Virus record (IMG/VR): IMGVR_UViG_3300032173_000016
Span: 1 to 38,160 of that record
Strand: one strand, 5' to 3'
DNA from: a virus
DNA: 38,160 nucleotides
Shown: piece after piece, positions 5,517 through 38,160 of the stretch
Numbering within the stretch: the first letter of the stretch is position 1
Layout of the letters: the number at the start of each line of letters is the position of its first letter
Program-made: the position numbers and the translations under genes
Notes under the pieces: generated by a model
What the model saw: only the letters and a program-made list of their open reading frames with translations
What the model was told of the DNA's origin: nothing
Databases searched by the model: none

Positions 5517-6046
5517 TGAACAATGAATCTCGCATACCGCAAGCCTCAAACGAAGCCCGCATCCTGAAAATCATCGCCGAAAGTTCCAGCGTCAATGAAA
5601 GCTGCATTGAGCTGACCCATTCCATCGTGACGGATCTGCATTGCGATTCGCTGGACCGCGCAGGAATCATGGTGGAACTTGAAGTGCAGTTTGACATCGA
5701 GATCGATGAGGACGATTTTGCCAAGTGCGTCACCGTGCAACAGGCGATCGATTACGTTGCAGACGTCTGTACACGTAAAAACTCGCCAGCCACTTCTTGC
5801 GTATCCCACCACCATGCGTGCGAATGCCGCGAACAGAAGATCGCCACCTTCAACAAGGCGTCGCTCGATGCTGCAATGGAACTGGACTGGCTCAAGAACG
5901 AGTTCGATATCCCCGAGGACAAGCTTGACGCGATCACGCTGACCAGCAGCCGGGTCTATACCGCCAGCGCTGCGCTTTACCCCCAGGAAGACCCGATCGA
6001 ACAAATGCGCCGGCTCATCGTCACCGAAACCGAGGTGACGGCATGA
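5513..6046 (+). CDS. Acyl carrier protein with C-terminal extension
   Basis: The N-terminal 85 residues have the acyl carrier protein pattern. Helix 1 is followed by the phosphopantetheine attachment motif D-S-L (residues 45-47), then VELEVQFDIEIDEDD and a closing VQQAIDYV helix. Ser46 is the expected 4'-phosphopantetheine site, so the protein would be loaded by a host holo-ACP synthase and carry an acyl group. About 90 further residues contain HHHACEC, a possible metal site, and a helical end I do not recognise. AGGGAG precedes the ATG. The start is shared with the TGA of the preceding gene in its alternative frame. The partner enzyme and substrate are unknown. Confidence 0.7.
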   Translation: MMNNESRIPQASNEARILKIIAESSSVNESCIELTHSIVTDLHCDSLDRAGIMVELEVQFDIEIDEDDFAKCVTVQQAIDYVADVCTRKNSPATSCVSHHHACECREQKIATFNKASLDAAMELDWLKNEFDIPEDKLDAITLTSSRVYTASAALYPQEDPIEQMRRLIVTETEVTA

Positions 6047-6198
6047 ACCACTACCTGATCACTCTCAATAGTGCGACCGGCCTGATCGAATGCGAAGAGT
6101 TTTCGGTCAGCCCATTTGCCGCCATCTGCAAGATGCTGCGCTCGATCCACCAGCTGCCGAACGGCATGTTTCGGCTCACCTGCAAAGCCATCGCTTAA
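6043..6198 (+). CDS. Small phage protein (51 aa)
   Basis: The ATG overlaps the stop of the ACP gene (ATGA). The 51-residue product begins MNHYLITLNSATGLIECEEF. It has no recognised domain, but the look is that of a compact beta-rich phage protein. Its first codons matter: a 28-bp stretch (6053-6080) recurs at 9314-9341 with two silent differences. The duplicated copy is in the region where the cassette array ends. Translation coupling supports a real gene; function unknown. Confidence 0.6.
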   Translation: MNHYLITLNSATGLIECEEFSVSPFAAICKMLRSIHQLPNGMFRLTCKAIA

Positions 6199-6401: not shown

Positions 6402-6500
6402 ATGACGGAATTGGAAGATGCAATTATTGCCATCGTCAGCCATGCGCCGGAATCGGATTTATTGAGGGCGAGAAAATTGGTCGAACAGGTAGGGGCATAA
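6402..6500 (+). CDS. Tiny ORF ending inside the first attC
   Basis: An ATG opens a 32-codon ORF (MTELEDAIIAIVSHAPESDL and onward) whose TAA is part of the first attC core GCATAAC. Ending within the attC 5' core is typical of cassette ORFs, and ORFs at 7807 and 8087 end the same way. There is no convincing ribosome-binding site, so it may be weakly expressed or not at all. It could be the remains of a cassette or of a phage gene into which the array was joined. Confidence 0.35.
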   Translation: MTELEDAIIAIVSHAPESDLLRARKLVEQVGA

Positions 6501-6608
6501 CGTGCAAGGTGAGGCGCTGCCCACCGCAAAACAGGAGACAAAGCTGTGACAACTGAAACCGCAAACGAACACGATGTAGGGCAGTCGCGCTCGACCGATG
6601 GGTTGGGC
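6495..6608 (+). repeat. attC site A (integron-type)
   Basis: Outer cores are GCATAAC and GTTGGGC. The arms GGTGAGGCGCTGCCC (from 6508) and GGGCAGTCGCGCTCGACC (from 6579) pair over 15 bp, leaving three unpaired bases, one after each 3-bp step. The loop is long, about 56 nt, and holds the ribosome-binding site and start codon of the methyltransferase ORF. This is the leftmost site of the array. Confidence 0.7.
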
Positions 6609-7157
6609 ATCACTCCCCGCCGTGTGCTCGACCCCTGCTGCGGCAGCCGGATGATGTGGTTTGACCGGAAGCACCCGGATGTTATTTTTGGCGATAAGCG
6701 AAGCGAAACCATCGTTGTAACCGACCGCTCGAATGGAAACGCTAGCGGGACTCGGACGCTGCGGATTGAGCCGGACATGCTGATTGACTTCAGGGCGTTG
6801 CCATACCCGGACGGGTCGTTCAAGCTTGTGGCGTTCGATCCTCCACACCTACACACGGCAGGGCCGCGTTCGTGGATGGCAGCGAAGTACGGAAAGCTCG
6901 GCACCAATTGGCGCGCTGACTTGCGCCAAGGCTTCGCGGAGTGCTTCCGCGTTCTTGACCGGGACGGTGTGCTGATTTTCAAGTGGAACGAAACCCAGGT
7001 GAAGGTGCGCGAGGTGCTGGCGCTGACACCGGTGCCGCCGCTGTTCGGACACATTTCCGGGCGCAAAGGGCTGACGCACTGGATGGTTTTCATGACGCCC
7101 AACGTTCAAATTGAGGGGATGGCCGTCACCGGACTTGGCCGGCCCCCCGAAAGTTGA
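6546..7157 (+). CDS. SAM-dependent methyltransferase cassette gene
   Basis: The 203-residue class I methyltransferase has motif I LDPCCGSRMMWF near residue 28, an FDPPHL motif (DPPY-like, seen in N6-adenine or related enzymes), then FRVLDRDGVLIFKWNE and a C-terminal HWMVFM strand. It probably methylates phage DNA or another nucleic acid to evade restriction; the target is not visible. The start is GTG behind AGGAG, which lies inside the loop of attC site A. A start at TTG 6603 would make it wholly internal to the cassette. The C-terminal 20 residues read into attC site B. Confidence 0.75.
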   Translation: MTTETANEHDVGQSRSTDGLGITPRRVLDPCCGSRMMWFDRKHPDVIFGDKRSETIVVTDRSNGNASGTRTLRIEPDMLIDFRALPYPDGSFKLVAFDPPHLHTAGPRSWMAAKYGKLGTNWRADLRQGFAECFRVLDRDGVLIFKWNETQVKVREVLALTPVPPLFGHISGRKGLTHWMVFMTPNVQIEGMAVTGLGRPPES

Positions 7158-7217
7158 TAAACCACAGGCCGTGAAAAGCCCGCATACGGCCAGTCCCGCT
7201 CGAATGTAGGGTTAGGC
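7097..7217 (+). repeat. attC site B
   Basis: Cores are GCCCAAC and GTTAGGC, a good complementary pair. The arms ATTGAGGGGATGGCCGT and ACGGCCAGTCCCGCTCGAAT pair with the same three unpaired positions as the other sites, apart from one mismatch near the third. The central region is about 60 nt long and includes the stop of the methyltransferase gene. It closes a 609-bp cassette. Confidence 0.75.
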
Positions 7218-7242
7218 GGCATTGATAACTACGGAGAACAAT

Positions 7243-7464
7243 ATGGGATTTCCAAACGGAATTTACCGGACGAAAAATGGTTCGATGATGGAAATCAGCG
7301 GCAAGCACAGCGGAATAAGCAAGGTTGATTTTGACTGGCTCGAAGAGGGCGCATGTTGCGACTGCGCTCCAGATGTATACGAGCAACACGGGCAGCTGGT
7401 GTGGCACTGTGACGAATGCGGGGGCGGCAGCGCGGAACTGTTTCCGGTTGCGCCTAACGACTAA
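7243..7464 (+). CDS. Cassette gene: small Cys-rich protein
   Basis: The 73-residue product has CCDC and CDEC clusters about 20 residues apart, suggesting a zinc ribbon at the C-terminal half. The N-terminal half (GIYRTKNGSMMEISGKHSG) is polar and beta-prone. The ATG at 7243 follows ACGGAG; an in-frame upstream start lies nearer the cassette edge but lacks a ribosome-binding site. The stop falls six bases past the 5' core of attC site C. It is a single-gene cassette of 291 bp. Function unknown. Confidence 0.6.
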   Translation: MGFPNGIYRTKNGSMMEISGKHSGISKVDFDWLEEGACCDCAPDVYEQHGQLVWHCDECGGGSAELFPVAPND

Positions 7465-7508
7465 ATTAAGGGGCTGCGAAGCAGTCCCGCTTGAATGCCT
7501 TGTTAGGC
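7452..7508 (+). repeat. attC site C
   Basis: Cores GCCTAAC and GTTAGGC are perfectly complementary. The arms ATTAAGGGGCTGC and GCAGTCCCGCTTGAAT pair around a GAA loop, leaving single unpaired bases at the three positions seen in the other sites. At 57 bp it is the most compact and most classical site of the array. Confidence 0.85.
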
Positions 7509-7526
7509 GTGGAACTGGAGATAGAA

Positions 7527-7805
7527 ATGGCACATGGGCGACTTATTGAAATGGGGCAATTGACTACGATTGACCAGGATGGATCGAAGACAGAATACAA
7601 GATGGCGCTGGTAATTGAATTCCCCAGCACTGATGAAATAAGGAAGGCGATCAAAGACGGGAAGTGCGATTTCACATGGGGCGAGATTCCGACGACGCCT
7701 AACGTGGAGCTAAGGGGCTGCGCGCTTTTGCGCAGTCCCGTGGAGGCCGAAGGCCGGAACGAACTTGAGCGGAGGGTTATGCCCCGCCTTAACTACGGAG
7801 AATGA
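7527..7805 (+). CDS. Cassette gene: small protein read through attC
   Basis: The 92-residue product starts at an ATG after TGGAG. The first 57 or so residues (MAHGRLIEMGQLTTIDQDGS and onward, then TDEIRKAIKDGKCDFTWGEIP) look like a compact domain with no recognised family. The rest is translated attC site D. Compared with site E, site D carries 23 extra bases. Without them this ORF would stop at an in-frame TGA in the attC 3' arm, so the C-terminal tail is probably a by-product of that insertion. Its stop overlaps a non-used ATG just before the next cassette gene. Confidence 0.5.
   Translation: MAHGRLIEMGQLTTIDQDGSKTEYKMALVIEFPSTDEIRKAIKDGKCDFTWGEIPTTPNVELRGCALLRSPVEAEGRNELERRVMPRLNYGE
7697..7782 (+). 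repeat. attC site D with 23-nt insertion
   Basis: Cores are GCCTAAC and GTTATGC. The first 36 bases after the core match site E almost exactly, including the GGGGCTGCGC stem and the CAGTCCC of the 3' arm. Then 23 extra bases (7740-7762), holding a GGCCGAAGGCC mini-hairpin, interrupt the arm before ACTTGAGCG resumes. Without the insert the arms pair as in site E. Confidence 0.7.
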
Positions 7806-7806
7806 A

Positions 7807-7986
7807 ATGCAAATTGTGAATGTATCGGTGTTGGACGGAAAAGGCCTCATCTCAATTGTCGTAGCGGATGATAAAGACAGGATTCGGATACAGGATTATT
7901 TTCGGAAATCGTCAGAATTGATTATCGAGGCCGATGAATTTGAGGCCGCGAGACAACGGCACCTTGCAATAGAGCGAGGGGCCTAA
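7807..7986 (+). CDS. Cassette gene: 59-aa protein
   Basis: GGAG lies six bases before the ATG. The product (MQIVNVSVLDGKGLISIVVA and onward) is a small alpha-beta protein with a charged C-terminal helix (IIEADEFEAARQRHLAIERG). Its TAA is supplied by the 5' core of attC site E, as is usual for cassette genes. The leader AACTACGGAGAA is nearly identical to that of the Cys-rich cassette gene, suggesting a shared 5' cassette design. Function unknown. Confidence 0.6.
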   Translation: MQIVNVSVLDGKGLISIVVADDKDRIRIQDYFRKSSELIIEADEFEAARQRHLAIERGA

Positions 7987-8043
7987 CGTGTAGCTAAGGG
8001 GCTGCGCGCTTTTGCGCAGTCCCACTTGAGCGTAGGGTTAGCC
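7981..8043 (+). repeat. attC site E
   Basis: Cores are GCCTAAC and GTTAGCC, the latter with one base off the usual GTTRRRY. The arms GCTAAGGGGCTGCGC and GCGCAGTCCCACTTGAGC pair with three single unpaired bases at 3-bp intervals, around a GCTTTT loop. It is 63 bp and closes a 261-bp cassette. Confidence 0.8.
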
Positions 8044-8086
8044 CAGCACCCTTTATTGGCTGGGCAAAAAGCAAAGGAAAATATCC

Positions 8087-8254
8087 ATGAAAATTGAACT
8101 GAAGCAAAACGTAACAATTGTTGAAAGCGGAGAGCAGGGAACGGTAATTGGCCGTGCCGAATACACGACATCAGACCCTTGCTACTTGGTGCGTTACAAG
8201 TGCGCCGATGGACGGGCAGTTGAATCATGGTGGACTGAAAGCGCGCTGGCATAA
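8087..8254 (+). CDS. Cassette gene: 55-aa SH3/KOW-like protein
   Basis: AAAGGAA precedes the ATG. The product runs VTIVESGEQGTVIGRAEYTT, then YLVRYKCADGRAVESWWTESAL, which is the pattern of a small SH3/KOW-like barrel with a conserved-looking WW. Proteins of this style are frequent as tiny phage and cassette genes. The TAA is part of the 5' core of attC site F. A hairpin, GCCCAG with CTGGGC, lies in its leader (8041-8066). Function unknown; a fold match would need a profile search. Confidence 0.6.
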   Translation: MKIELKQNVTIVESGEQGTVIGRAEYTTSDPCYLVRYKCADGRAVESWWTESALA

Positions 8255-8309
8255 CGTGAGAAGTAACCGGCGTGCCGAAGGCACGTCCGAGTTGACTGAC
8301 GGGTTATGC
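8249..8309 (+). repeat. attC site F
   Basis: Cores GCATAAC and GTTATGC are perfectly complementary. The arms AGTAACCGGCGTGCC and GGCACGTCCGAGTTGACT pair fully except for three single unpaired bases, again after each 3-bp step. The stem sequence differs from sites C-E while the pattern of unpaired bases is kept. It closes a 266-bp cassette. Confidence 0.85.
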
Positions 8310-8321
8310 CCCGGCGACTAG

Positions 8322-9251
8322 ATGACAGCCTACTACAACGAACACGACCCGTATGCCGCGCAATGGCTGCGGAACCTGATAACAGCGGGACATATAGCGC
8401 CCGGAGAAGTTGATGAAAGGAGCATTGAGGATGTTTTGCCTTCCGAACTCGCCGGCTACACGCAATGCCATTTCTTCGCCGGCATCGGTGTTTGGTCACT
8501 CGCGCTTAGACGCGCAGGTTGGCCCGACGATCGACCTGTTTGGACAGGTTCCTGCCCGTGCCAACCTTTCAGCGCGGCAGGCAAAGGACTTGCTTTTGCT
8601 GACGAGCGGCACCTATGGCCAGCGTGGCACCACCTCATTACCCAGCGAAAACCTCCGCAGTTTTTTGGCGAGCAAGTTGCAAGCAGTGACGGCTACGCTT
8701 GGCTCGACCTTGTTCAAATTGACGTGGAAGCAGCAGGTTACGCCTTTGGGCCGGTCGTTCTCCCTGCTGCGGGCTTCGGTGCGCCGCACGGACGCCACCG
8801 GATTTTCTTCGTGGCCGACGCCGACAAGCAACAATGGAACGGGGGTCGGAACATCGGGGCGGGAAGGCGGATTAAATCTGCAATCAGCAGCTCAGCTTTC
8901 CGGGTGGCAGACGCCAACATGCCCGAGCAGGACGGCGGACGGGCACCAAGCGGGGAACAACCGATATGTGACAAGCGTGACGGATGCTCTAGCACCGTGG
9001 AGCACGCCGAGGGCGAACAAGCGCGGGTTTCTAGACTCGCACGGCAGCGACGAGCGACCGGCGGACATTGGGCTGATGCCGATTGGCTACCGTGCCAGGG
9101 CGGAAAGTGGAGGCCCATTGAACCCGGAACATTCCCGTTGGCTCATGGGATTGCCTGCCGAATGGACAAGCTGCGCGCCTTTGGAAACGCGATCAGCCCT
9201 CAAGTCGCCGAAGCGTTCATCCGGGCTTTTAGCGAAAGCAGAAAATGGTAG
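8322..9251 (+). CDS. DNA cytosine-5 methyltransferase
   Basis: The 309-residue protein has the C5-methyltransferase motifs in order: FAGIGVWSLALRRAG (motif I), GSCPCQPFSAAGKG with the catalytic cysteine (IV), FGEQVAS in place of the usual ENV (VI), APHGRHRIFFVAD (VIII) and LRAFGNAISPQVAEAFI (X). The target-recognition region is short. It would methylate cytosine in phage DNA, probably against host restriction. It is the last cassette of the array, behind attC site F. The ribosome-binding site is weak. A second long ORF in the +1 frame covers nearly all of it. The EQV variant of motif VI occurs in some phage enzymes of this type. Confidence 0.85.
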   Translation: MTAYYNEHDPYAAQWLRNLITAGHIAPGEVDERSIEDVLPSELAGYTQCHFFAGIGVWSLALRRAGWPDDRPVWTGSCPCQPFSAAGKGLAFADERHLWPAWHHLITQRKPPQFFGEQVASSDGYAWLDLVQIDVEAAGYAFGPVVLPAAGFGAPHGRHRIFFVADADKQQWNGGRNIGAGRRIKSAISSSAFRVADANMPEQDGGRAPSGEQPICDKRDGCSSTVEHAEGEQARVSRLARQRRATGGHWADADWLPCQGGKWRPIEPGTFPLAHGIACRMDKLRAFGNAISPQVAEAFIRAFSESRKW

Positions 9252-9300
9252 GAAGGCCCATGAGGGGCATAACGCAGAGTTGAGGGGGCGCGCACTATGA
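8413..9300 (+). CDS. Overlapping ORF in the +1 frame of the C5 methyltransferase gene
   Basis: A 295-residue ORF lies in the +1 frame over the methyltransferase gene. It has its own strong GGAG ribosome-binding site six bases before the ATG. The protein has organised features rather than shadow-like composition: STLFKLTWKQQVTPLGRSFS, the repeated phrases SSWPTPTSN, SGWQTPT and PWSTPRA, and a C-terminal NPEHSRWLMGLPAEW. I recall proteins with these WPTP and NPxxxRWLMG phrases in other phages and proteobacteria beside or over this type of methyltransferase. Function is unknown. The alternative is that the frame is open only because of codon bias in the methyltransferase. Confidence 0.55.
   Translation: MKGALRMFCLPNSPATRNAISSPASVFGHSRLDAQVGPTIDLFGQVPARANLSARQAKDLLLLTSGTYGQRGTTSLPSENLRSFLASKLQAVTATLGSTLFKLTWKQQVTPLGRSFSLLRASVRRTDATGFSSWPTPTSNNGTGVGTSGREGGLNLQSAAQLSGWQTPTCPSRTADGHQAGNNRYVTSVTDALAPWSTPRANKRGFLDSHGSDERPADIGLMPIGYRARAESGGPLNPEHSRWLMGLPAEWTSCAPLETRSALKSPKRSSGLLAKAENGRKAHEGHNAELRGRAL
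9267..9295 (+). repeat. attC half-site G
   Basis: A GCATAAC core and a GTTGAGGGGGCGCGC 5' arm look like the left half of an attC. The expected 3' arm and GTTRRRY core are missing. Instead the sequence changes to phage DNA that repeats the start of the gene at 6043. The last cassette has therefore lost the right half of its attC. Confidence 0.5.
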
Positions 9301-9313
9301 ACGACAAACAAAA

Positions 9314-9341
9314 ACCTGATCACCCTCAATAGCGCGACCGG
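9314..9341 (+). repeat. Duplicated fragment of the 6043 gene
   Basis: Twenty-six of 28 bases match 6053-6080, the beginning of the 51-residue phage gene. In that reading frame the copy encodes NLITLNSATG, and both differences are silent. The frame stops soon after. It marks the join between the cassette array and the phage backbone. Confidence 0.7.
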
Positions 9342-9379
9342 AGCTGGAGCATGAGCCAGCAACGGAGAGGGTCGCCCGA

Positions 9380-9445
9380 ATGAAAGCCATCGAGCGAGGC
9401 GAGCCATATATCCCTCAACCACAACCAAGAAGATTCGGAATCTAA
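9380..9445 (+). CDS. Possible 21-aa peptide
   Basis: A 21-codon ORF (MKAIERGEPYIPQPQPRRFG and one more residue) starts at an ATGA overlap with a 10-codon ORF from 9351. It stops two bases before the DUF4224-like gene. GAGAGGG upstream could serve as a ribosome-binding site. The length makes chance possible. Confidence 0.3.
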   Translation: MKAIERGEPYIPQPQPRRFGI

Positions 9446-9447
9446 TC

Positions 9448-9660
9448 ATGAGTCTCTTCATCACCCCCGAAGACCTGAAAGAACTGACCGGCTTCACCGT
9501 CAAGGAAAAGCAGATCAAGCAGCTGCGCCGCATGGGCATACCGTTCTTCGTGAACGGCTGTGGCCGCGCTGTGGTGGCCGTGTCGGCAGTGGAAGGCAGG
9601 AAACAAGACGAACAGCCGAAACAAGGCTGGAAGCACGCCGTATTGCAGGGCGGACGATAA
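9448..9660 (+). CDS. DUF4224-like protein next to integrase
   Basis: The 70-residue product begins MSLFITPEDLKELTGFTVKE, then KQIKQLRRMGIPFFVNGCGR. This is the DUF4224 pattern, a small HTH-like protein usually encoded directly upstream of phage tyrosine integrases. An excisionase-like or integrase-helper role is often assumed from that position, but I know of no proof. Here an attC-type site (H) and a half-site (I) lie between it and the integrase gene, so the normally tight pair is separated by about 180 bp. Confidence 0.75.
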   Translation: MSLFITPEDLKELTGFTVKEKQIKQLRRMGIPFFVNGCGRAVVAVSAVEGRKQDEQPKQGWKHAVLQGGR

Positions 9661-9665
9661 GGAGG

Positions 9666-9732
9666 AATCAACGCAAAAGCTGTGGGGCTGGACGCCGCAG
9701 GCGGACAGTCCCACACGAGCGACGGGTTGGAG
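9666..9732 (+). repeat. Degenerate attC site H
   Basis: The arms GCTGTGGGGCTG (from 9679) and CAGTCCCACACGAGC (from 9706) pair with exactly the three unpaired positions found in sites A-F. The outer cores AATCAAC and GTTGGAG each depart from consensus by one base. It begins five bases after the stop of the DUF4224-like gene, as if that gene were a cassette. Confidence 0.6.
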
Positions 9733-9766
9733 GGCTAGGCGTGAGACTTGATGTGCGCAGCAACGC

Positions 9767-9800
9767 ATAGCTAAGGGGCGCGCGCAGCGCGCAAATGGGT
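9767..9800 (+). repeat. attC-like half-site I
   Basis: CAACGCATAGCTAAGGGGCG resembles the core-plus-5'-arm part of attC site E (AACGTGTAGCTAAGGGGC). A small CGCGCGCAGCGCGC palindrome follows, but there is no 3' arm or second core. It lies just before the integrase gene and is probably the remains of another attC. Confidence 0.35.
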
Positions 9801-9841: not shown

Positions 9842-10975
9842 ATGCGCGCCATGGGACGCCGACCAACCAAGAACCTCAACCTACCGCCACGCATGCGCGC
9901 ACGTGAGCGGCGTGGAGTGGTTTGGTATTACTACGACGCCGGCGGCAAGCCGCGCAAAGAGATCCCGCTAGGCAAGGACTACACCATCGCAGTTGGCAAA
10001 TGGGCCGAGCTAGAAGGCGACCAGACCTGCACCAGCAAGATGCTGCTCTTCAAAGACGCCGCTGATCGCTACATGCGCGACGTTCTGCCAACCAAGGCAG
10101 AGCGCACCCGGCGTGATAACCTGGTCGAACTCGACTGGCTGCTAAAATTCTTCAATAACCCTCCCGCACCGCTGTCCAACATCGACCCGATCCACATCCG
10201 GCAATACATGGATTGGCGCGTCGAACAAACAAAATTGCGGCTGCAAGCAGACAATGAGCAGCGCATCAAAGATAAAAAGCCCACGCTTGAACTGACTGGC
10301 CGCGAAGGTAAGGTCCGCGCCAATCGTGAAAAGGCGCTGTTCTCCCATATCTGGAACAAGGCCAGAGAATGGGGGCTGACCGACCGCACTAACCCATGCG
10401 CCGGCATTAAAGGCTACAGCGAGACCGGACGCGACATCTACATCGAAGACGAGATATTCGAGGCCGTATGGCAGGCAGGATGCCAGCCTATGCGCGACGC
10501 GATGGATCTGGCCTACCTATCTGGACAGCGTCCGGATGACGTGATCTCCGCGAGCGAGACCGACATCAAGAATGGCGCGCTGGAATTCAACCAGGGAAAG
10601 ACCGGCAAGAGACTACGCATCGAGATTATTGGCGAGCTGGATACCCTCATCAAACGCATCAAGGCGCGCAAGGAAGGCTACAAAGTACACACCCTGGCAC
10701 TGATCTGCACCGAAACCGGCAGACCACTCACCCCCTCTGCATACCGCGACCGCTTCGACAAAGCCCGCACCGCCGCCGCCAAAGCCAATCCGAAACTAGC
10801 GGAGGAAATCTGGAAATTCCAGTTTAAGGATTTGCGCGCCAAAGCAGGAACCGACAAAGCCGAATCATCCGGCGACATTCGCCAGGCACAAAAACAGCTT
10901 GGACATACCACCGTCACCATGACCGAACACTACACTAGAGATCGGCGCGGGGATCTGGTAAAGCCGACGAAATAA
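9842..10975 (+). CDS. int: Phage tyrosine integrase
   Basis: The 377-residue tyrosine recombinase has an N-terminal arm-binding-type part (RRGVVWYYYDAGGKPRKEIP), a core-binding part, and catalytic residues Arg230 (SGQRPDD), Lys253, Arg332 (FKDLRAK), His355 (LGHTTVT) and Tyr364 (EHYTR). Lys329 stands where box II usually has His. It lacks the extra alpha-helix region expected of integron IntI enzymes and looks like an ordinary phage integrase, so it probably acts on the attP near 15.7 kb. AAGGGG precedes the first ATG; a second in-frame ATG three codons later is also possible. The att site is unusually distant, about 4.7 kb downstream. Confidence 0.9.
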   Translation: MRAMGRRPTKNLNLPPRMRARERRGVVWYYYDAGGKPRKEIPLGKDYTIAVGKWAELEGDQTCTSKMLLFKDAADRYMRDVLPTKAERTRRDNLVELDWLLKFFNNPPAPLSNIDPIHIRQYMDWRVEQTKLRLQADNEQRIKDKKPTLELTGREGKVRANREKALFSHIWNKAREWGLTDRTNPCAGIKGYSETGRDIYIEDEIFEAVWQAGCQPMRDAMDLAYLSGQRPDDVISASETDIKNGALEFNQGKTGKRLRIEIIGELDTLIKRIKARKEGYKVHTLALICTETGRPLTPSAYRDRFDKARTAAAKANPKLAEEIWKFQFKDLRAKAGTDKAESSGDIRQAQKQLGHTTVTMTEHYTRDRRGDLVKPTK

Positions 10976-11922: not shown

Positions 11923-13325
11923 CCCAAGCCATGCTCCATCAGACCAAAGCCGCCGATAAACTCGATGGCCTCAAGGTCGGCCTGCTGCTCATGGAGATGG
12001 GCACGGGCAAGACGCGCACCTATCTCGACATCGCGCTGCGCAAGATGCGCGCGGGCAAGGCCAGCCGCGCCGTCATCCAGTGCCCGGTCGCGGGCAAGGA
12101 TCACATCGCCGACGAGGTGCTGAAGCACACTGGCCAAGCCGCTGTGGTGCATGGCGGCGACTACCGGCAGCCGCCTGGCGCGTTCAACATCATCGGCATC
12201 GAGAGCCAGTCCAGCAGCATCCGCGCGATGAACAAGCTGGCCGAGTTGTCGCAAGATGCCGTGGTTATCTGCGACGAATCGCAGCTCATCAAGAACCGCG
12301 ACACCAAGCGCACCAAGCACATCAAGCAGGCCACATACGGATCGCGCTACCGCTACCTGTCCAGCGGCCTCGCCATGCCGAACGGCATGGAAGACCTGTA
12401 CAGCCAATGTGAGTGGCTATCGCCGCTGGTGCTCGGCTACAACAGCTACAGCGAGTTCGCGCGCTGGCACTTGAAGCACGCGCTGGACGACCTCGGCATG
12501 CACGGGCAGGGGCGCATCACCGGGCGCTTTAACACCGATCTGATCGCGGCCAAGCTCGCGCCCTATTCGTTCGAGGCGCGCAAGGCGGACTGCCTCGATC
12601 TGCCGCCCAAGACCTACAACTACTACACCGCCGAACTCGGCGACGAAGCGCGCGAAGCCTACGACGATGCCAAGCGCCGCATCCTGCATGGCAAGAAAGC
12701 GTTCGAGGTGGACGATGCCACCATCTACCGGCTGTTCACCGCGCTGCAACTCATCAGCTCCGGCGTGGCGCCGGAATGGCTGTACGACAAGGACAAGGGC
12801 GAGCGCCCGCCGACGCTGTCCAACGCCAAACTGCCGCTGCTACGCACCGTGCTGGGCAACACCAGCGGCAAGCGCGTGGTGTGGTGCAAATACCGCGCCG
12901 AGGCGGATCAGGCCGAACAAACACTGATCGCGGCGGGCATCCGCTACGAGCGCATCGACGGCAAGGTGAAGCCAGCCGAGCGACGTGTGCGCCTGCGTCG
13001 CTGGAAGGAAGAATCCGATGTGCTGATCAGCACCATCCAGGTGGGCGGAATGGTACATGACTGGGGCTTCGCCGACTACGCCATCTACCTGAGCAACAGC
13101 TTCGACTACATGCTGCGCGCGCAAAGCGAAGACCGCACCCACCGCGCGATGATGACCGGCAAGGCTCACTACATAGACCTGCGCGCCGACTGCGGCATCG
13201 AGAAGCGCATCAGCCGTTCGTTGGGGCACAAGGAACACGCGCTCAAGGCGTTTCAGGACAAGATCAGGCAGTTACGGATGCAGCAGAACAAGGATGCTAT
13301 TGTGCTGGAATTGGAGGCGCTATGA
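11916..13325 (+). CDS. SNF2-type DEAD/DEAH-like helicase
   Basis: The 469-residue superfamily 2 ATPase has Walker A GTGKT at residues 29-33, a Walker B variant CDESQ (Asp120), SGLAMPNGMEDLYSQ (motif III region), and a C-terminal half with ISTIQVGGMVHDWGFADYAI and QSEDRTHR (motifs V and VI). This layout matches the SNF2-like helicases of phages, which translocate on double-stranded DNA. I chose the ATG at 11916 because it overlaps the previous stop; the ATG at 11847 lies inside that gene. It overlaps the IbrA-like gene by ATGA. The role may be replication, recombination or remodelling linked to the next two gene products. Confidence 0.8.
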   Translation: MLTQAMLHQTKAADKLDGLKVGLLLMEMGTGKTRTYLDIALRKMRAGKASRAVIQCPVAGKDHIADEVLKHTGQAAVVHGGDYRQPPGAFNIIGIESQSSSIRAMNKLAELSQDAVVICDESQLIKNRDTKRTKHIKQATYGSRYRYLSSGLAMPNGMEDLYSQCEWLSPLVLGYNSYSEFARWHLKHALDDLGMHGQGRITGRFNTDLIAAKLAPYSFEARKADCLDLPPKTYNYYTAELGDEAREAYDDAKRRILHGKKAFEVDDATIYRLFTALQLISSGVAPEWLYDKDKGERPPTLSNAKLPLLRTVLGNTSGKRVVWCKYRAEADQAEQTLIAAGIRYERIDGKVKPAERRVRLRRWKEESDVLISTIQVGGMVHDWGFADYAIYLSNSFDYMLRAQSEDRTHRAMMTGKAHYIDLRADCGIEKRISRSLGHKEHALKAFQDKIRQLRMQQNKDAIVLELEAL

Positions 13326-14605
13326 ATGTGCATGAAGCCGCGTTGCGGCGGCTTGATTACATCTTCAATGAGTTCGACAACGTGTATGTGTCGCTGAGCG
13401 GTGGTAAGGATAGTGGTGTACTGTTGAACCTTGTGCTCGACTACATGCGCACCAACGGCATCAAGCGCAAGGTAGGCGTATTCTTCGTTGATCTCGAAGC
13501 CTTCTATAAGTCCACCATCGAATTCATCGAGCGGATGATCCTTGACAACAGCGACCTGATCGATCCGTACTGGGTATGCCTGCCCATGCTATCTATAAAC
13601 TCGGTATCCATGTACGAGCCGTGGTGGATGTTCTGGGAAGAAGCTAAACGTGACAAGTGGGTGCGCACCATGCCGGCGCATCCATTCATCATCAACAGCG
13701 AAAATAATCCGTTCGAGTTCTGGCGAGAACGCATGACGTTCGAGGAGTTCATCGAACACTTCGGCAAATGGTACGCACAGAAGCACGGAGGACGAACGGC
13801 CTGCCTGGTAGGAATTCGTACACAGGAGAGTCTGAACCGCTGGCGCGCCCTTAACCGTGAAGACAAGGGAATGTGGAAGGGCTGCGCTTACTCGACCAAA
13901 AAAGCGGATGACGTGTTCAACTTTTACCCAATCCATGATTGGCTGGTTGAAGATATCTGGACGTACAACGGGAAATTCCAGAAGCCATACAATCGAGCTT
14001 ACGACCTGTTTCATCAGGCGGGCGTACTATTGAGTAAGATGCGTATCTGCGAGCCATTCGGGGACGAACAGAAGGCTGGGCTTAACCTGTTCCGGTTCGT
14101 CGAACCGGAAACATGGGCGCGGGTTGCTGATCGTGTAAGCGGTGCGAATTTTGGAAATATTTATTGCGGAACGAAAGCGATGGGCATGAAATATTTTCCA
14201 CTACCAAAAGGCCACACTTGGAAAAGCTATTGTAAATTTCTGCTGAAAACGCTTCCCGATGATACCCGCAAGACTTACTTGCGCCGGTTCGTCAAGTTCA
14301 TCAAATATTGGCATCGCGAGGGAACGCCGACGATAGATGAGCATATCAATGCGCTACCGCAGGACGCTATCATCAATACCGGGCAATTCAGCGTGCGCGG
14401 CAAGGGTGACAAGCATGTGGTGCGGTTCAAACGCATTCTGGATGAGCTGCCCGGACTTGATACTAAAGCCGACTTCCCGACATGGAAGCGGATGTGCCTG
14501 ACGATCCTAAAGAACGACATCACCTGCAAGAGCTTGCATTTCGGCCTGACCAAGTATGAATTGGACAAGCGCGCAACAACGATTCGCAAATATCAATCCT
14601 ATTGA
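13322..14605 (+). CDS. IbrA-like PAPS-reductase-family protein (DUF3440)
   Basis: The 427-residue protein has the PP-loop SLSGGKDSGVLL at residues 24-35, used by PAPS-reductase and ATP-pyrophosphatase enzymes. It then has ACLVGIRTQESLNRWRA and a long C-terminal region typical of the IbrA/DUF3440 family. IbrA is encoded with IbrB in E. coli, where the pair affects expression of eib genes; the chemistry is not known. DndC, the sulfur-transfer protein of DNA phosphorothioation, belongs to the same superfamily, so nucleic-acid modification is possible but unproven. It overlaps the helicase gene and is followed after 7 bp by the ParB-domain gene. Confidence 0.8.
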   Translation: MNVHEAALRRLDYIFNEFDNVYVSLSGGKDSGVLLNLVLDYMRTNGIKRKVGVFFVDLEAFYKSTIEFIERMILDNSDLIDPYWVCLPMLSINSVSMYEPWWMFWEEAKRDKWVRTMPAHPFIINSENNPFEFWRERMTFEEFIEHFGKWYAQKHGGRTACLVGIRTQESLNRWRALNREDKGMWKGCAYSTKKADDVFNFYPIHDWLVEDIWTYNGKFQKPYNRAYDLFHQAGVLLSKMRICEPFGDEQKAGLNLFRFVEPETWARVADRVSGANFGNIYCGTKAMGMKYFPLPKGHTWKSYCKFLLKTLPDDTRKTYLRRFVKFIKYWHREGTPTIDEHINALPQDAIINTGQFSVRGKGDKHVVRFKRILDELPGLDTKADFPTWKRMCLTILKNDITCKSLHFGLTKYELDKRATTIRKYQSY

Positions 14606-14612
14606 GGAAATC

Positions 14613-15119
14613 ATGAATACAAGCCCGGTTTATAACGTGCAAGCAGTGCCCATCGAGAAGATCAGGGCGAACGCCTACAACCCGAACGCCGTCGCGCCGC
14701 CGGAAATGAAGTTGCTGGAGATCAGCATCTGGGAAGACGGCTACACCATGCCTATCGTGTGCTACTACCTACCGGACGAGGATGTGTATGAGATCGTGGA
14801 CGGCTACCACCGCTACACCGTGATGCTGACCAGCGTCCGCATCTACGAACGCGAACGCGGCATGATGCCTATCGTGGTGATAGACAAACCGATCAGCGAC
14901 CGCATGGCCTCCACCATCCGCCATAACCGCGCGCGCGGCACGCACAGCATCGACTTGATGGTAAACATCGTCGCCGAGCTAGTCGAGGCCGGAATGGGCG
15001 ATGCGTGGATCATGCGCCATATCGGCATGGACATGGACGAGCTGCTTCGTCTAAAACAGATCAGCGGGCTGGCGGCGCTATTCAAGGACAGACAATTTTC
15101 AACATCACATGAATTATGA
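14613..15119 (+). CDS. IbrB-like ParB-domain protein
   Basis: A GAGGAAA ribosome-binding site precedes this ATG; the earlier in-frame start would overlap the previous gene. The 168-residue protein has a ParB/Srx N-terminal domain: VQAVPIEKIRANAYNPN, then DGYTMPIVC, the DGYHRY box at residues 63-68, then the NRARGTHSIDLM motif. ParB-type folds bind CTP, ATP or DNA. Next to an IbrA-like protein this matches IbrB. The C-terminal part (MRHIGMDMDELLRLKQISGL) could be an HTH. It overlaps the next gene by ATGA. Expected partner: the IbrA-like protein. Confidence 0.8.
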   Translation: MNTSPVYNVQAVPIEKIRANAYNPNAVAPPEMKLLEISIWEDGYTMPIVCYYLPDEDVYEIVDGYHRYTVMLTSVRIYERERGMMPIVVIDKPISDRMASTIRHNRARGTHSIDLMVNIVAELVEAGMGDAWIMRHIGMDMDELLRLKQISGLAALFKDRQFSTSHEL

Positions 15120-15702: not shown

Positions 15703-15765
15703 GCTGGACTTAAAATCCGTCGGCTTGAAAAGGCCGTACCGGTTCAATTCCGGTCTCGGGCACCA
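15703..15765 (+). other. tRNA-Leu(UAA) 3' fragment, likely att core
   Basis: From the anticodon region (CTTAAAA loop, anticodon TAA at 15711-15713) through the variable arm, the T arm (GGTTCAATTCC) and CTCGGGCACCA, the sequence matches a tRNA-Leu. The 5' part does not: no D arm with GG is present, and the anticodon stem has a C-T mismatch. So it is not a functional tRNA gene. It is the sort of 3' segment a phage carries to restore the host tRNA on integration. Confidence 0.75.
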
Positions 15766-22389: not shown

Positions 22390-23094
22390 CTAGTGCGGCC
22401 CTGCCGTATTGCCAGAGCCGGTCGTAACGCCACCGTGCACATGCGTCTTGAGGCTGATGCCATCGGCGGTGACATCGCCGCCGGTGATGGCGATATTGCC
22501 CGCTACAGAAGAGGCTCCGGCGAGTCCGGTGGAGGCCAATCCGCCAACCGTTGCCATGCCGGCGACGTTCGCGGTGGACTTCATCGTCACCGCGCCATCG
22601 GCCTCGACCGTGCTCTTCATCACCACAGCACCATCGACCTGCAGCGCGCCGGTCAGGTGCGTTGTGGGGGTGTTCAATGTCACCGAGGTGGTGGCATTCA
22701 CCACTACCGTAGAGGCATCGTTCACCGTTACCGACTGCCCGGCAGCCTCGACCACGATGCCGGTTTGCGACAATTTGACGTACTTGCCGAAGGCGTCGTA
22801 AAGCGCCACCTCACCGGGAGCGAGGTTCTTCAAGCGAAAGGTTTGGTTGCCGGTAGCAATCACCACACCGCTTGATCTATCGCCGCGTAAAAAAACCAGA
22901 ACTGCATCTGAACCCGGCGGCGGCATTGAGGTAAAACCAAATTCTGCCAAACGCGGTGTGTTGTCCCGTACCTCATCGGCACCAAGCTGCACCTGCAGCA
23001 TTTGCACGACACCGCTATCATTTCCGGTCGCGACTTTGCCGATGCCGATCATCATCATGATGCGGCGATAGAGGCGTTCGATTGCTTCCAGCAT
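22390..23094 (-). CDS. Mu gp45-like baseplate spike protein
   Basis: The 234-residue protein has an OB-fold N-terminal domain (VQMLQVQLGADEVRDNTPRL, then EFGFTSMPPPGSDAVLVFLR) and a C-terminal beta-helix with VTVNDASTVVVNATTSVTLN repeats. It ends in a histidine motif (KTHVHGGVTTGSGNTAGPH) that often binds iron at the spike tip. This is the central spike of the contractile tail, like Mu gp45 and P2 gpV. The first 28 codons are repeated, nearly unchanged, in the chimeric ORF just upstream. Length is usual. Confidence 0.9.
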   Translation of the reverse strand: MLEAIERLYRRIMMMIGIGKVATGNDSGVVQMLQVQLGADEVRDNTPRLAEFGFTSMPPPGSDAVLVFLRGDRSSGVVIATGNQTFRLKNLAPGEVALYDAFGKYVKLSQTGIVVEAAGQSVTVNDASTVVVNATTSVTLNTPTTHLTGALQVDGAVVMKSTVEADGAVTMKSTANVAGMATVGGLASTGLAGASSVAGNIAITGGDVTADGISLKTHVHGGVTTGSGNTAGPH

Positions 23095-23145
23095 TGTTCA
23101 GGCGCCAGATTTCACATCAGGGAACGAGGGGAACAGCAGCAACGG
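23009..23145. repeat. 137-bp direct repeat, copy 1
   Basis: Matches 23309-23445 at an offset of exactly 300 bp with one mismatch (A at 23109, G at 23409). It spans the first codons of the gp45-like gene, the 3-bp intergenic join, and the last codons of the P-like gene. Confidence 0.95.
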
Positions 23146-23394
23146 CGTTTTCAGGATCTCGTCCAATGCGTCCCAGGTTGCGGGCAATGCTGGATCTCCA
23201 TGGATGACATGGTAATCGATCATCCAGCGTTCCATGCCCTCACCCCAACCCTGTATCTTGAGCTCAAGGCGGTTATCCTGCGTGTCGACAGCTGCCGTGA
23301 GGATAATCACACCGCTATCATTTCCGGTCGCGACTTTGCCGATGCCGATCATCATCATGATGCGGCGATAGAGGCGTTCGATTGCTTCCAGCAT
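23098..23394 (-). CDS. Chimeric ORF: gp45 start, terminase fragment, P-like end
   Basis: The 98-residue ORF joins three pieces in frame. Its start MLEAIERLYRRIMMMIGIGK is identical to that of the gp45-like gene. The middle (GWGEGMERWMIDYHVIHGD and neighbours) is identical to terminase sequence at the right end of the window. The end FPSFPDVKSGA copies the C-terminus of the P-like gene with one change. A stand-alone function is unlikely. It is the product of a 300-bp duplication with a foreign insert, or an assembly chimera. Confidence 0.6.
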   Translation of the reverse strand: MLEAIERLYRRIMMMIGIGKVATGNDSGVIILTAAVDTQDNRLELKIQGWGEGMERWMIDYHVIHGDPALPATWDALDEILKTPLLLFPSFPDVKSGA

Positions 23395-23445
23395 TGTTCA
23401 GGCGCCAGGTTTCACATCAGGGAACGAGGGGAACAGCAGCAACGG
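23309..23445. repeat. 137-bp direct repeat, copy 2
   Basis: Second copy of the repeat at 23009-23145. Between the copies lies DNA identical to terminase DNA: 23139-23265 equals 38034-38160 base for base, and the similarity probably continues to about 23308 beyond what the window can show. Confidence 0.95.
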
Positions 23446-37380: not shown

Positions 37381-38160
37381 TTATGCAAGTTTGCTGACAA
37401 GAAATTTCTTGCTTTCAGTACCTGGTTGTGAATTTGTTGCTGCCGGGGCCGGCGGTGTCACAATTCCAGGTTTCCATTCCGGTACGGACGTCTGCACAAA
37501 CAGATCGCCCTGCGGCGGATTCACTTTCAGCCGTTCACGTGCCCAGTCATTTTCGCGAAACTTATGCAGCCCCAGGCGATGCGCAGCCGCAAGGTTGTAC
37601 ACGCTCAAGTCCAGCGCTTCATTGCGATCACCGCGGGCCTTGATCCATTCAAAGCGCTTGTGCCCCTTGATGTATCGCGTCTGTCGCCGTTCGCTGCATA
37701 TCTGCGTATAGAAATCGTCCGGCAGATCCACAGAGAAGTGCACGCCACCCGGACCGCTGGCGATCTTCCAGCGGCTATGCAGCCAGTCCTTGGCGGTGTC
37801 GGTACCGACACTCCATAGCTCGGCGCCGCCCTTCTCGACCTTGCCGCGCCGGTTGATATCAACCTTGCTTGGGGTTGCCGATACGACTGGCCGCCCCGGC
37901 TTGCTGGCGCCCTTGATCGCGAACACCATGCGGTATTTGCGCTGCCGGACGAATTCGTAAACTTCCTGCGTGTAGTGACCGCCTGAGTCAATCGCCGTCG
38001 CTCGAATCGTCATGTTCAGGCCATTCGCGCGGCGCAACGGCGTTTTCAGGATCTCGTCCAATGCGTCCCAGGTTGCGGGCAATGCTGGATCTCCATGGAT
38101 GACATGGTAATCGATCATCCAGCGTTCCATGCCCTCACCCCAACCCTGTATCTTGAGCTC
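37381..38160 (-). CDS. Terminase large subunit (GpA-like), partial
   Basis: About 260 C-terminal residues are visible; the ATPase half lies beyond the right edge. Recognisable parts are the nuclease domain of lambda GpA-type terminases: DALDEILKTPL, AIDSGGHYTQEVYEFVRQRK, FAIKGASKPGRPVVSATPSK and ALDLSVYNLAAAHRLGLHKF. The reading frame runs through the window edge, so the ATG at 38130 is internal. It cuts concatemers and packages DNA into proheads. A stretch of this gene (38034-38160 and probably more) is copied at 23139-23308. Confidence 0.9.
   Translation of the reverse strand, partial: ELKIQGWGEGMERWMIDYHVIHGDPALPATWDALDEILKTPLRRANGLNMTIRATAIDSGGHYTQEVYEFVRQRKYRMVFAIKGASKPGRPVVSATPSKVDINRRGKVEKGGAELWSVGTDTAKDWLHSRWKIASGPGGVHFSVDLPDDFYTQICSERRQTRYIKGHKRFEWIKARGDRNEALDLSVYNLAAAHRLGLHKFRENDWARERLKVNPPQGDLFVQTSVPEWKPGIVTPPAPAATNSQPGTESKKFLVSKLA

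What the first reader, a model, noticed from the sequence alone, without database searches (positions are those of the whole stretch)
6495..9800. Integron-type attC array (CALIN-like) inside a phage genome, with no IntI in the window
Six complete attC-like sites (A-F), one degenerate site (H) and one or two half-sites separate small rightward ORFs, several of which stop inside the next site's 5' core. Cassette sizes between crossover points are 609, 291, 274, 261 and 266 bp. The flanking genes are phage genes on both sides (ACP operon; DUF4224 and integrase). Clusters of attC lacking an integrase are known in chromosomes; finding one in the accessory slot of a tailed phage would make the phage a carrier of cassettes and a substrate for a host's IntI.
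Basis: partly seen in the sequence, partly recalled or inferred. Interest (0 to 1): 0.92.

Follow-up and report, generated by a model that had tools for sequence, protein, structure and literature searches.

The report
Integron gene-cassette array inside a phage
A temperate bacterial virus carries a row of swappable integron gene cassettes, including two DNA-methylating enzymes of ordinary phage families, without the enzyme that moves them; integron cassettes in phages were already known, but here a likely host with the missing enzyme can be named and a sister phage carries a different cassette set.

Summary
Cassette sizes are exactly as stated. No intI is on this (incomplete) contig. The same attC type lies beside intact intI in chromosomal integrons of Gallionella, Sulfuricella and relatives. 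The phage's attP copies 59/60 nt of the tRNA-Leu(UAA) of Gallionella sp. STA_17, which has intI and this attC type; attP is uninterrupted, so the array lies inside the phage. Ordinary phage methyltransferase homology stops at the attC edges. A sister phage (L009, integrase 77% identical) carries a different array in the same slot; L002 (80%) has none. Best reading: a genuine CALIN whose cassettes were gained with IntI supplied by the host. CALINs in phages, methyltransferase cassettes and recombination of phage attC by IntI1 were published in 2023 (Qi et al.), so this is a new, unusually informative member of a known kind. Recombination itself is not shown.

The parts
6402..6500 (+). small ORF (32 aa) whose stop codon is the TAA of the R'' core of attC A; possible remnant of a preceding cassette
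   Evidence: read from sequence; no other support
6495..6608 (+). attC A (114 bp, R'' GCATAAC, R' GTTGGGC)
   Evidence: R2 E 3e-10
6546..7157 (+). cassette 1 gene: DNA methyltransferase (phrog_954)
   Evidence: 1.5e-67; dN/dS 0.08 against L226
7097..7217 (+). attC B (121 bp, long loop); 80-82% identical to chromosomal attC of Sulfuricella sp. T08 and others
   Evidence: R2 E 1.5e-10; blastn
7243..7464 (+). cassette 2 gene, 73 aa, no family match; leader ACTACGGAGA..ATG
7452..7508 (+). attC C (57 bp, perfectly paired cores)
   Evidence: R2 E 2e-11; folds as expected
7527..7805 (+). cassette 3 ORF, no family match, reads through attC D
7697..7782 (+). attC D (86 bp, 23-nt insertion on the L' side)
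   Evidence: R2 E 9e-7
7807..7986 (+). cassette 4 gene, 59 aa, no family match; same leader as cassette 2
7981..8043 (+). attC E (63 bp), near consensus of the Gallionella/Nitrosomonadales type
   Evidence: R2 E 1e-19
8087..8254 (+). cassette 5 gene, 55 aa, phage family phrog_8618
   Evidence: 5e-23
8249..8309 (+). attC F (61 bp, perfectly paired cores)
   Evidence: R2 E 1e-10; fold z -4.2
8322..9251 (+). cassette 6 gene: C5-cytosine DNA methyltransferase (phrog_363, PF00145)
   Evidence: 2e-82, 1.5e-17
9267..9296 (+). 5' half of a truncated attC (R'' GCATAAC plus L'' arm); its R'' pairs perfectly with the R' of F
   Evidence: sequence
9448..9660 (+). excisionase-type DUF4224 protein of the phage
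   Evidence: PF13986 3e-16, phrog_8896
9666..9732 (+). attC H, degenerate cores; 3' half shared with the int-proximal attC of sister phage L009
   Evidence: R2 E 2e-7
9757..9799 (+). possible second half site before the integrase
   Evidence: by eye only
9842..10975 (+). phage tyrosine integrase, not an IntI
   Evidence: phrog_1 7e-43; 16.5 bits to the IntI model, cut-off 265
15706..15765 (+). attP core: copy of the last 60 nt of tRNA-Leu(UAA)
   Evidence: 59/60 to Gallionella sp. STA_17 tRNA-Leu(taa); conserved in L002 and L009

Best explanation
The region is a genuine integron cassette array without an integron integrase (a CALIN) in the accessory slot of a temperate phage, beside its excisionase and integrase genes. 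SHOWN: seven attC sites in one orientation, six cassettes, three of the six cassette genes being of phage families (two methyltransferases and one small protein), no intI on the contig, the array inside the phage genome, and the same attC type beside intact intI in a likely host. INFERRED: cassettes entered when the phage was in a cell whose chromosomal IntI recombined folded single-stranded attC bottom strands, and they are replaced in the same way; the phage supplies sites and cargo, the host the recombinase. The methyltransferases probably protect phage DNA from host restriction; expression is probably by read-through from the upstream phage operon, using ribosome sites carried by the cassettes.
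For: R2, trained without window sites, finds all seven sites and nothing else and is specific. Ten of eleven genomes with this attC type carry an IntI over the cut-off, and several have it within 1.5 kb of such an attC. Core sites pair perfectly in circular form for cassettes 1, 2, 3 and 6. Homology of cas1, cas5 and cas6 to ordinary phage genes ends at attC borders, while attC B is 80-82% identical to chromosomal attC. attP is unbroken and matches tRNA-Leu of Gallionella sp. STA_17, which has IntI and this attC type. Sister phage L009 has a different array at the same place and L002 none. Homologues of cas1, cas5 and cas6 lie beside attC in other viral contigs. Phage attC of the same general kind were recombined by IntI1 in the published assay (PMC9892861).
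Against: No recombination event is seen directly; no closely related pair differing by one cassette was found. Sites A, D and H fold poorly as single strands, H has mismatched cores and the last cassette's attC is truncated, so part of the array is decaying. Only one of 91 integrase-flank loci of relatives has a comparable array. The host is inferred from attB and attC, not from a linked prophage. Two of the seven sites (C and E) contributed the pattern with which training sites were collected.
Confidence: 0.8

Rival explanations
1. Fossil CALIN: a stretch of chromosomal integron was picked up once by ordinary recombination and has been inherited as a block; no IntI has acted on it inside the phage.
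For: Degenerate H, truncated last site and poorly folding A and D. A 35-bp repeat of a phage gene lies on both sides of the array (6046-6080 and 9307-9341), as non-IntI recombination might leave. Arrays are rare among relatives.
Against: Half of the cassette genes are of phage families, not a sample of a host integron; sister phage L009 has entirely different cassettes in the same slot while sharing the H-type attC; C, E and F look intact.
Confidence: 0.3
2. The array is chromosomal integron DNA flanking a prophage end, or an assembly chimera, and not part of the phage.
For: The source is a metagenome contig with duplicated stretches at 23.0-23.4 kb and at its right end.
Against: attP at 15.7 kb is unbroken with phage genes on both sides; the array has the phage ACP gene on its left and the excisionase and integrase on its right; an independent contig, L009, has an array at the same place; the duplications are 13 kb away from the array.
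Confidence: 0.04
3. The hairpins are ordinary terminators or phage repeats that only resemble attC.
For: attC are imperfect hairpins, and D and E share 43 bp at 98%.
Against: Model built from chromosomal attC, many beside IntI, fits all seven including both core boxes; no T tracts, and the terminator scan found no + strand site in the region; no such hits in 743 kb of other phage DNA.
Confidence: 0.01
4. The phage's own tyrosine integrase moves the cassettes, so the phage carries a self-sufficient integron-like system.
For: The array lies beside int in the window and L009, and in L097 about 0.6 kb upstream of a different integrase.
Against: The integrase scores 16.5 bits against the IntI model, cut-off 265; relatives of it mostly have no attC nearby; attP is of tRNA type with repeated TTCCGCAA elements unlike attC.
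Confidence: 0.03

Closest known systems
CALINs in phage genomes (Qi et al. 2023, PMC9892861): Tetrasphaera phage TJE1, Polaribacter phage P12002L, Pseudoalteromonas phage PH101, myovirus MW202573
   Same: Array of attC cassettes without intI in a tailed phage; DNA methyltransferase cassettes; host IntI proposed as the recombinase, and IntI1 shown to recombine five of six phage attC tested
   Different: Here seven attC in a temperate phage beside int/xis; a candidate host with IntI, matching attC type and matching attB can be named; cassette borders between phage gene and host-type attC are resolved; a sister phage has other cassettes in the slot
Complete integrons in temperate phages (V. anguillarum phage Va_90-11-286_p16, Shewanella prophage M16-3; PMC9892861)
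   Same: attC cassettes in a temperate phage
   Different: Those carry intI and are pieces of the host's chromosomal integron or lie in a cryptic prophage; here no intI on the contig, and half of the cassette genes are phage families
Sedentary chromosomal integrons of Gallionella, Sulfuricella, Nitrotoga and relatives (loci)
   Same: Same attC type; attC B 80-82% identical in full to chromosomal sites; shared cassette leader ACTACGGAGA in L169
   Different: Those are chromosomal with IntI; the window's cassette genes were not found in them (one gene, cas2, searched in 200 genomes without a positive control)

Membership tests
CALIN (cluster of attC sites lacking an integron integrase) | at least two attC sites within a few kb | tested here: met
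   Seven sites in 3.2 kb
CALIN (cluster of attC sites lacking an integron integrase) | no intI nearby | tested here: met
   None on the 38-kb contig; contig ends are missing
CALIN (cluster of attC sites lacking an integron integrase) | attC with R''/L''/L'/R' boxes and an imperfect hairpin | tested here: met
   A, D and H weaker
CALIN (cluster of attC sites lacking an integron integrase) | cassette genes in one orientation ending at the next attC | tested here: met
   All on +; four stops inside the next attC, cas3 reads through
CALIN (cluster of attC sites lacking an integron integrase) | called by IntegronFinder or HattCI | not testable with these tools
   Own models R1 and R2 used instead
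Functional attC sites | recombined by an IntI | not testable with these tools
   Published for other phage attC (PMC9892861)
Complete integron | intI on the element | tested here: not met
   for this contig
Complete integron | attI site | not tested
   No general attI model at hand

The most novel reading that the evidence does not exclude
This phage lineage keeps a resident attC beside its integrase as a docking site and uses the host's IntI to collect and swap cassettes: an integron run on a borrowed recombinase, holding a phage-specific pool (methyltransferases and other phage genes fitted with host-type attC). The 3' half of the H-type attC beside int is shared by the window and L009 and by no other viral contig of 2.9 million, while the cassettes differ.
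Probability: 0.25. Interest if true: 0.75.

Novelty: new member of a known kind. Interest (0 to 1): 0.52.

Why it matters
It is a natural case in which phage, candidate host, host IntI and matching attC type can all be named, so exchange of cassettes between phages and chromosomal integrons becomes directly testable. Cassettes with sharp borders between phage gene and host-type attC also bear on the open question of how cassettes arise, and the methyltransferases suggest that integron recombination can supply phages with anti-restriction genes.

Tried and rejected
Rfam scan: no match at gathering score. A strict core-pair regex found only C plus overlapping or chance pairs, hence the covariance models. 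The narrow model R1 missed B and the ends of A; R2 recovered both. Cassette 2 protein in 200 genomes of the Gallionella order: nothing, without a positive control. PADLOC, NCBIfam and Pfam gave nothing usable for cas2, cas3 and cas4. The array against the phage and plasmid collections matched, in the rows listed, only at the methyltransferase genes. Promoter and terminator scan no better than shuffles. Joining the contig ends to test circularity did not give one terminase frame. The hypothesis that the phage integrase moves the cassettes was rejected on the family scores. Structure prediction of the small cassette proteins was not tried.

Full report
OBSERVATION. The window is a 38,160-base IMG/VR virus record with no intI; its best hit to the integron-integrase model is 17.5 bits, in the phage integrase, against a cut-off of 265. 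It encodes a lambda-family portal, S49 protease, capsid protein E, tail sheath, baseplate J and a gpA terminase nuclease domain, plus a tyrosine integrase and an excisionase-type DUF4224 protein: a temperate phage with a contractile tail. The terminase is cut off at the right end, so the genome is not complete.

To test the attC claim without window sites, a pattern seen in two of them (C and E) was used to fetch similar sites from 84,980 bacterial and archaeal genomes: 110 loci, mostly Gallionella/Gallionellaceae, Nitrosomonadales, Sulfuricella, Thiobacillus, Nitrotoga and Methylobacter. A model (R1) from 43 of these showed compensatory changes in the R and L boxes. R1 drew 191 matches from the chromosomal loci, and 150 of them made the broader model R2. 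R2 on the window gives exactly A, B, C, D, E, F and H and then nothing better than E = 0.086. R1 and R2 also find attC in a class 1 integron, a Vibrio phage and phage TJE1, and R2 finds nothing in 743 kb of methyltransferase-bearing phage loci. Reservation: C and E supplied the seed pattern, so those two are not wholly independent tests; A, B, D, F and H did not (D shares 43 bp with E).

ANATOMY. Cassettes between crossover points are 609, 291, 274, 261 and 266 bp; a sixth runs from F to a truncated site at 9267. Core sites pair perfectly in circular form for cassettes 1, 2, 3 and 6, with one and two mismatches for 4 and 5 (and the sequence for cassette 6). Stops of cas1, cas2, cas4 and cas5 lie inside the next attC. 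Bottom strands of C, E and F fold into the expected hairpins; A and D fold no better than shuffles. Cassettes 2 and 4 share a leader ACTACGGAGA..ATG that recurs in only five of the 442 loci held, among them L009, L097 right after an attC, and the chromosomal locus L169 right after an attC (with positions).

ORIGIN OF THE PARTS. Cas1 is a phage methyltransferase whose DNA similarity to dozens of phage copies runs from about 6611 to 7107, the borders of attC A and B. AttC B is 80-82% identical over its length to chromosomal attC in Sulfuricella sp. T08 (beside its IntI), a Comamonadaceae MAG and a Nitrosomonadales MAG. Cas5 similarity stops at 8248, one base before F; cas6 similarity to phages without detected attC starts at 8309, the last base of F. 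So phage genes are joined to host-type attC at attC borders. Homologues of cas1, cas5 and cas6 lie beside attC in other viral contigs (L226, L235, L319, L011), though most phage homologues do not.

IS IT REALLY IN THE PHAGE? At 15,706-15,765 is a copy of the last 60 nt of tRNA-Leu(UAA), conserved in the related phages L002 and L009 and flanked by repeated TTCCGCAA elements. It differs by one base from the tRNA-Leu(taa) of Gallionella sp. STA_17. This attP is unbroken and has phage genes on both sides, so the contig is the excised form and the array is not chromosomal flank. Gallionella sp. STA_17 (genome G001, locus L174) carries an intact IntI (469 bits) beside the same attC type, so a plausible host supplies the missing recombinase. 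That it is the actual host is inference.

RELATIVES. L009 (integrase 77% identical in its best segment, homologous flank near the ACP gene, homologous attP) has three good attC and one partial, with different genes, upstream of its integrase. L002 (80%) has no attC and lacks the ~160 bp holding H between excisionase and integrase. The 3' half of H is shared with the int-proximal attC of L009 and with no other viral contig searched, which suggests a resident site. Of 91 integrase-flank loci only L009 has a comparable array. In other attC-bearing viral contigs the array often lies near recombination genes: after a RecE-like exonuclease in L097, L100 and L103, and upstream of an integrase in L097.

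MECHANISM. Shown: array, sites, no intI on the contig, position in the phage, host-type attC, phage-type cargo, different slot contents between relatives. Inferred: IntI of the host recombines folded bottom strands during infection or lysogeny; methyltransferases guard against restriction; read-through expression. A single capture followed by decay is the main rival (0.3); it shares the CALIN identity and differs only in whether IntI has acted in the phage.

KNOWN OR NEW. Qi et al. 2023 (PMC9892861) reported 17 CALINs, 3 complete integrons and one In0 in phages, methyltransferase cassettes among them, and showed IntI1 recombination of five of six phage attC tested. The present case is a new member of that kind. 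What it adds is a candidate host with IntI, matching attC and matching attB, resolved cassette borders, a sister phage with other cassettes, and several more array-bearing viral contigs.

Noticed in passing
window 23009-23145, 23309-23445, 23139-23265, 38034-38160: A 137-bp stretch of the tail region is duplicated (99%) and the last 127 bp of the contig recur exactly at 23139-23265; this looks like an assembly-graph artefact and means the contig is not a clean complete genome.
   Followed up: partly
L002:2393-3820 with L002:1190-2053; L009:4438-5978: In sister phages the same accessory slot holds tandem proteins ending in a near-identical ...CECRARPVRR or ...SECRARPVRR stretch with variable residues before it, and in L002 a reverse-transcriptase-like ORF (YVDD motif): it looks like a diversity-generating retroelement.
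   Followed up: no
window 13322-15119: PAPS-reductase/DUF3440 gene followed by a ParB-like ORF, reminiscent of the IbrA/IbrB pair (ParB likeness and Ibr comparison from memory).
   Followed up: no
window 6046-6080 and 9307-9341: A 35-bp piece of the start of a small phage gene is repeated (86%) on the other side of the array, a possible trace of how the array entered.
   Followed up: no
window 7228-7245 and 7792-7809; L009:6075-6092; L097:10031-10050; L169:6021-6038: A shared cassette leader ACTACGGAGA..ATG just after attC, in phage and chromosomal cassettes alike; absent from 437 of 442 loci held.
   Followed up: partly
L097, L098, L100, L103, L048: Further viral contigs with five or six attC of the same kind in a few kb; in L097, L100 and L103 the array follows a RecE-like exonuclease gene, and a methyltransferase cassette occurs in L103.
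   Followed up: partly
L319:3465-6501: A viral contig with five attC sites of another, longer kind; a cas5 homologue sits between two of them. It might be a misclassified chromosomal integron.
   Followed up: no
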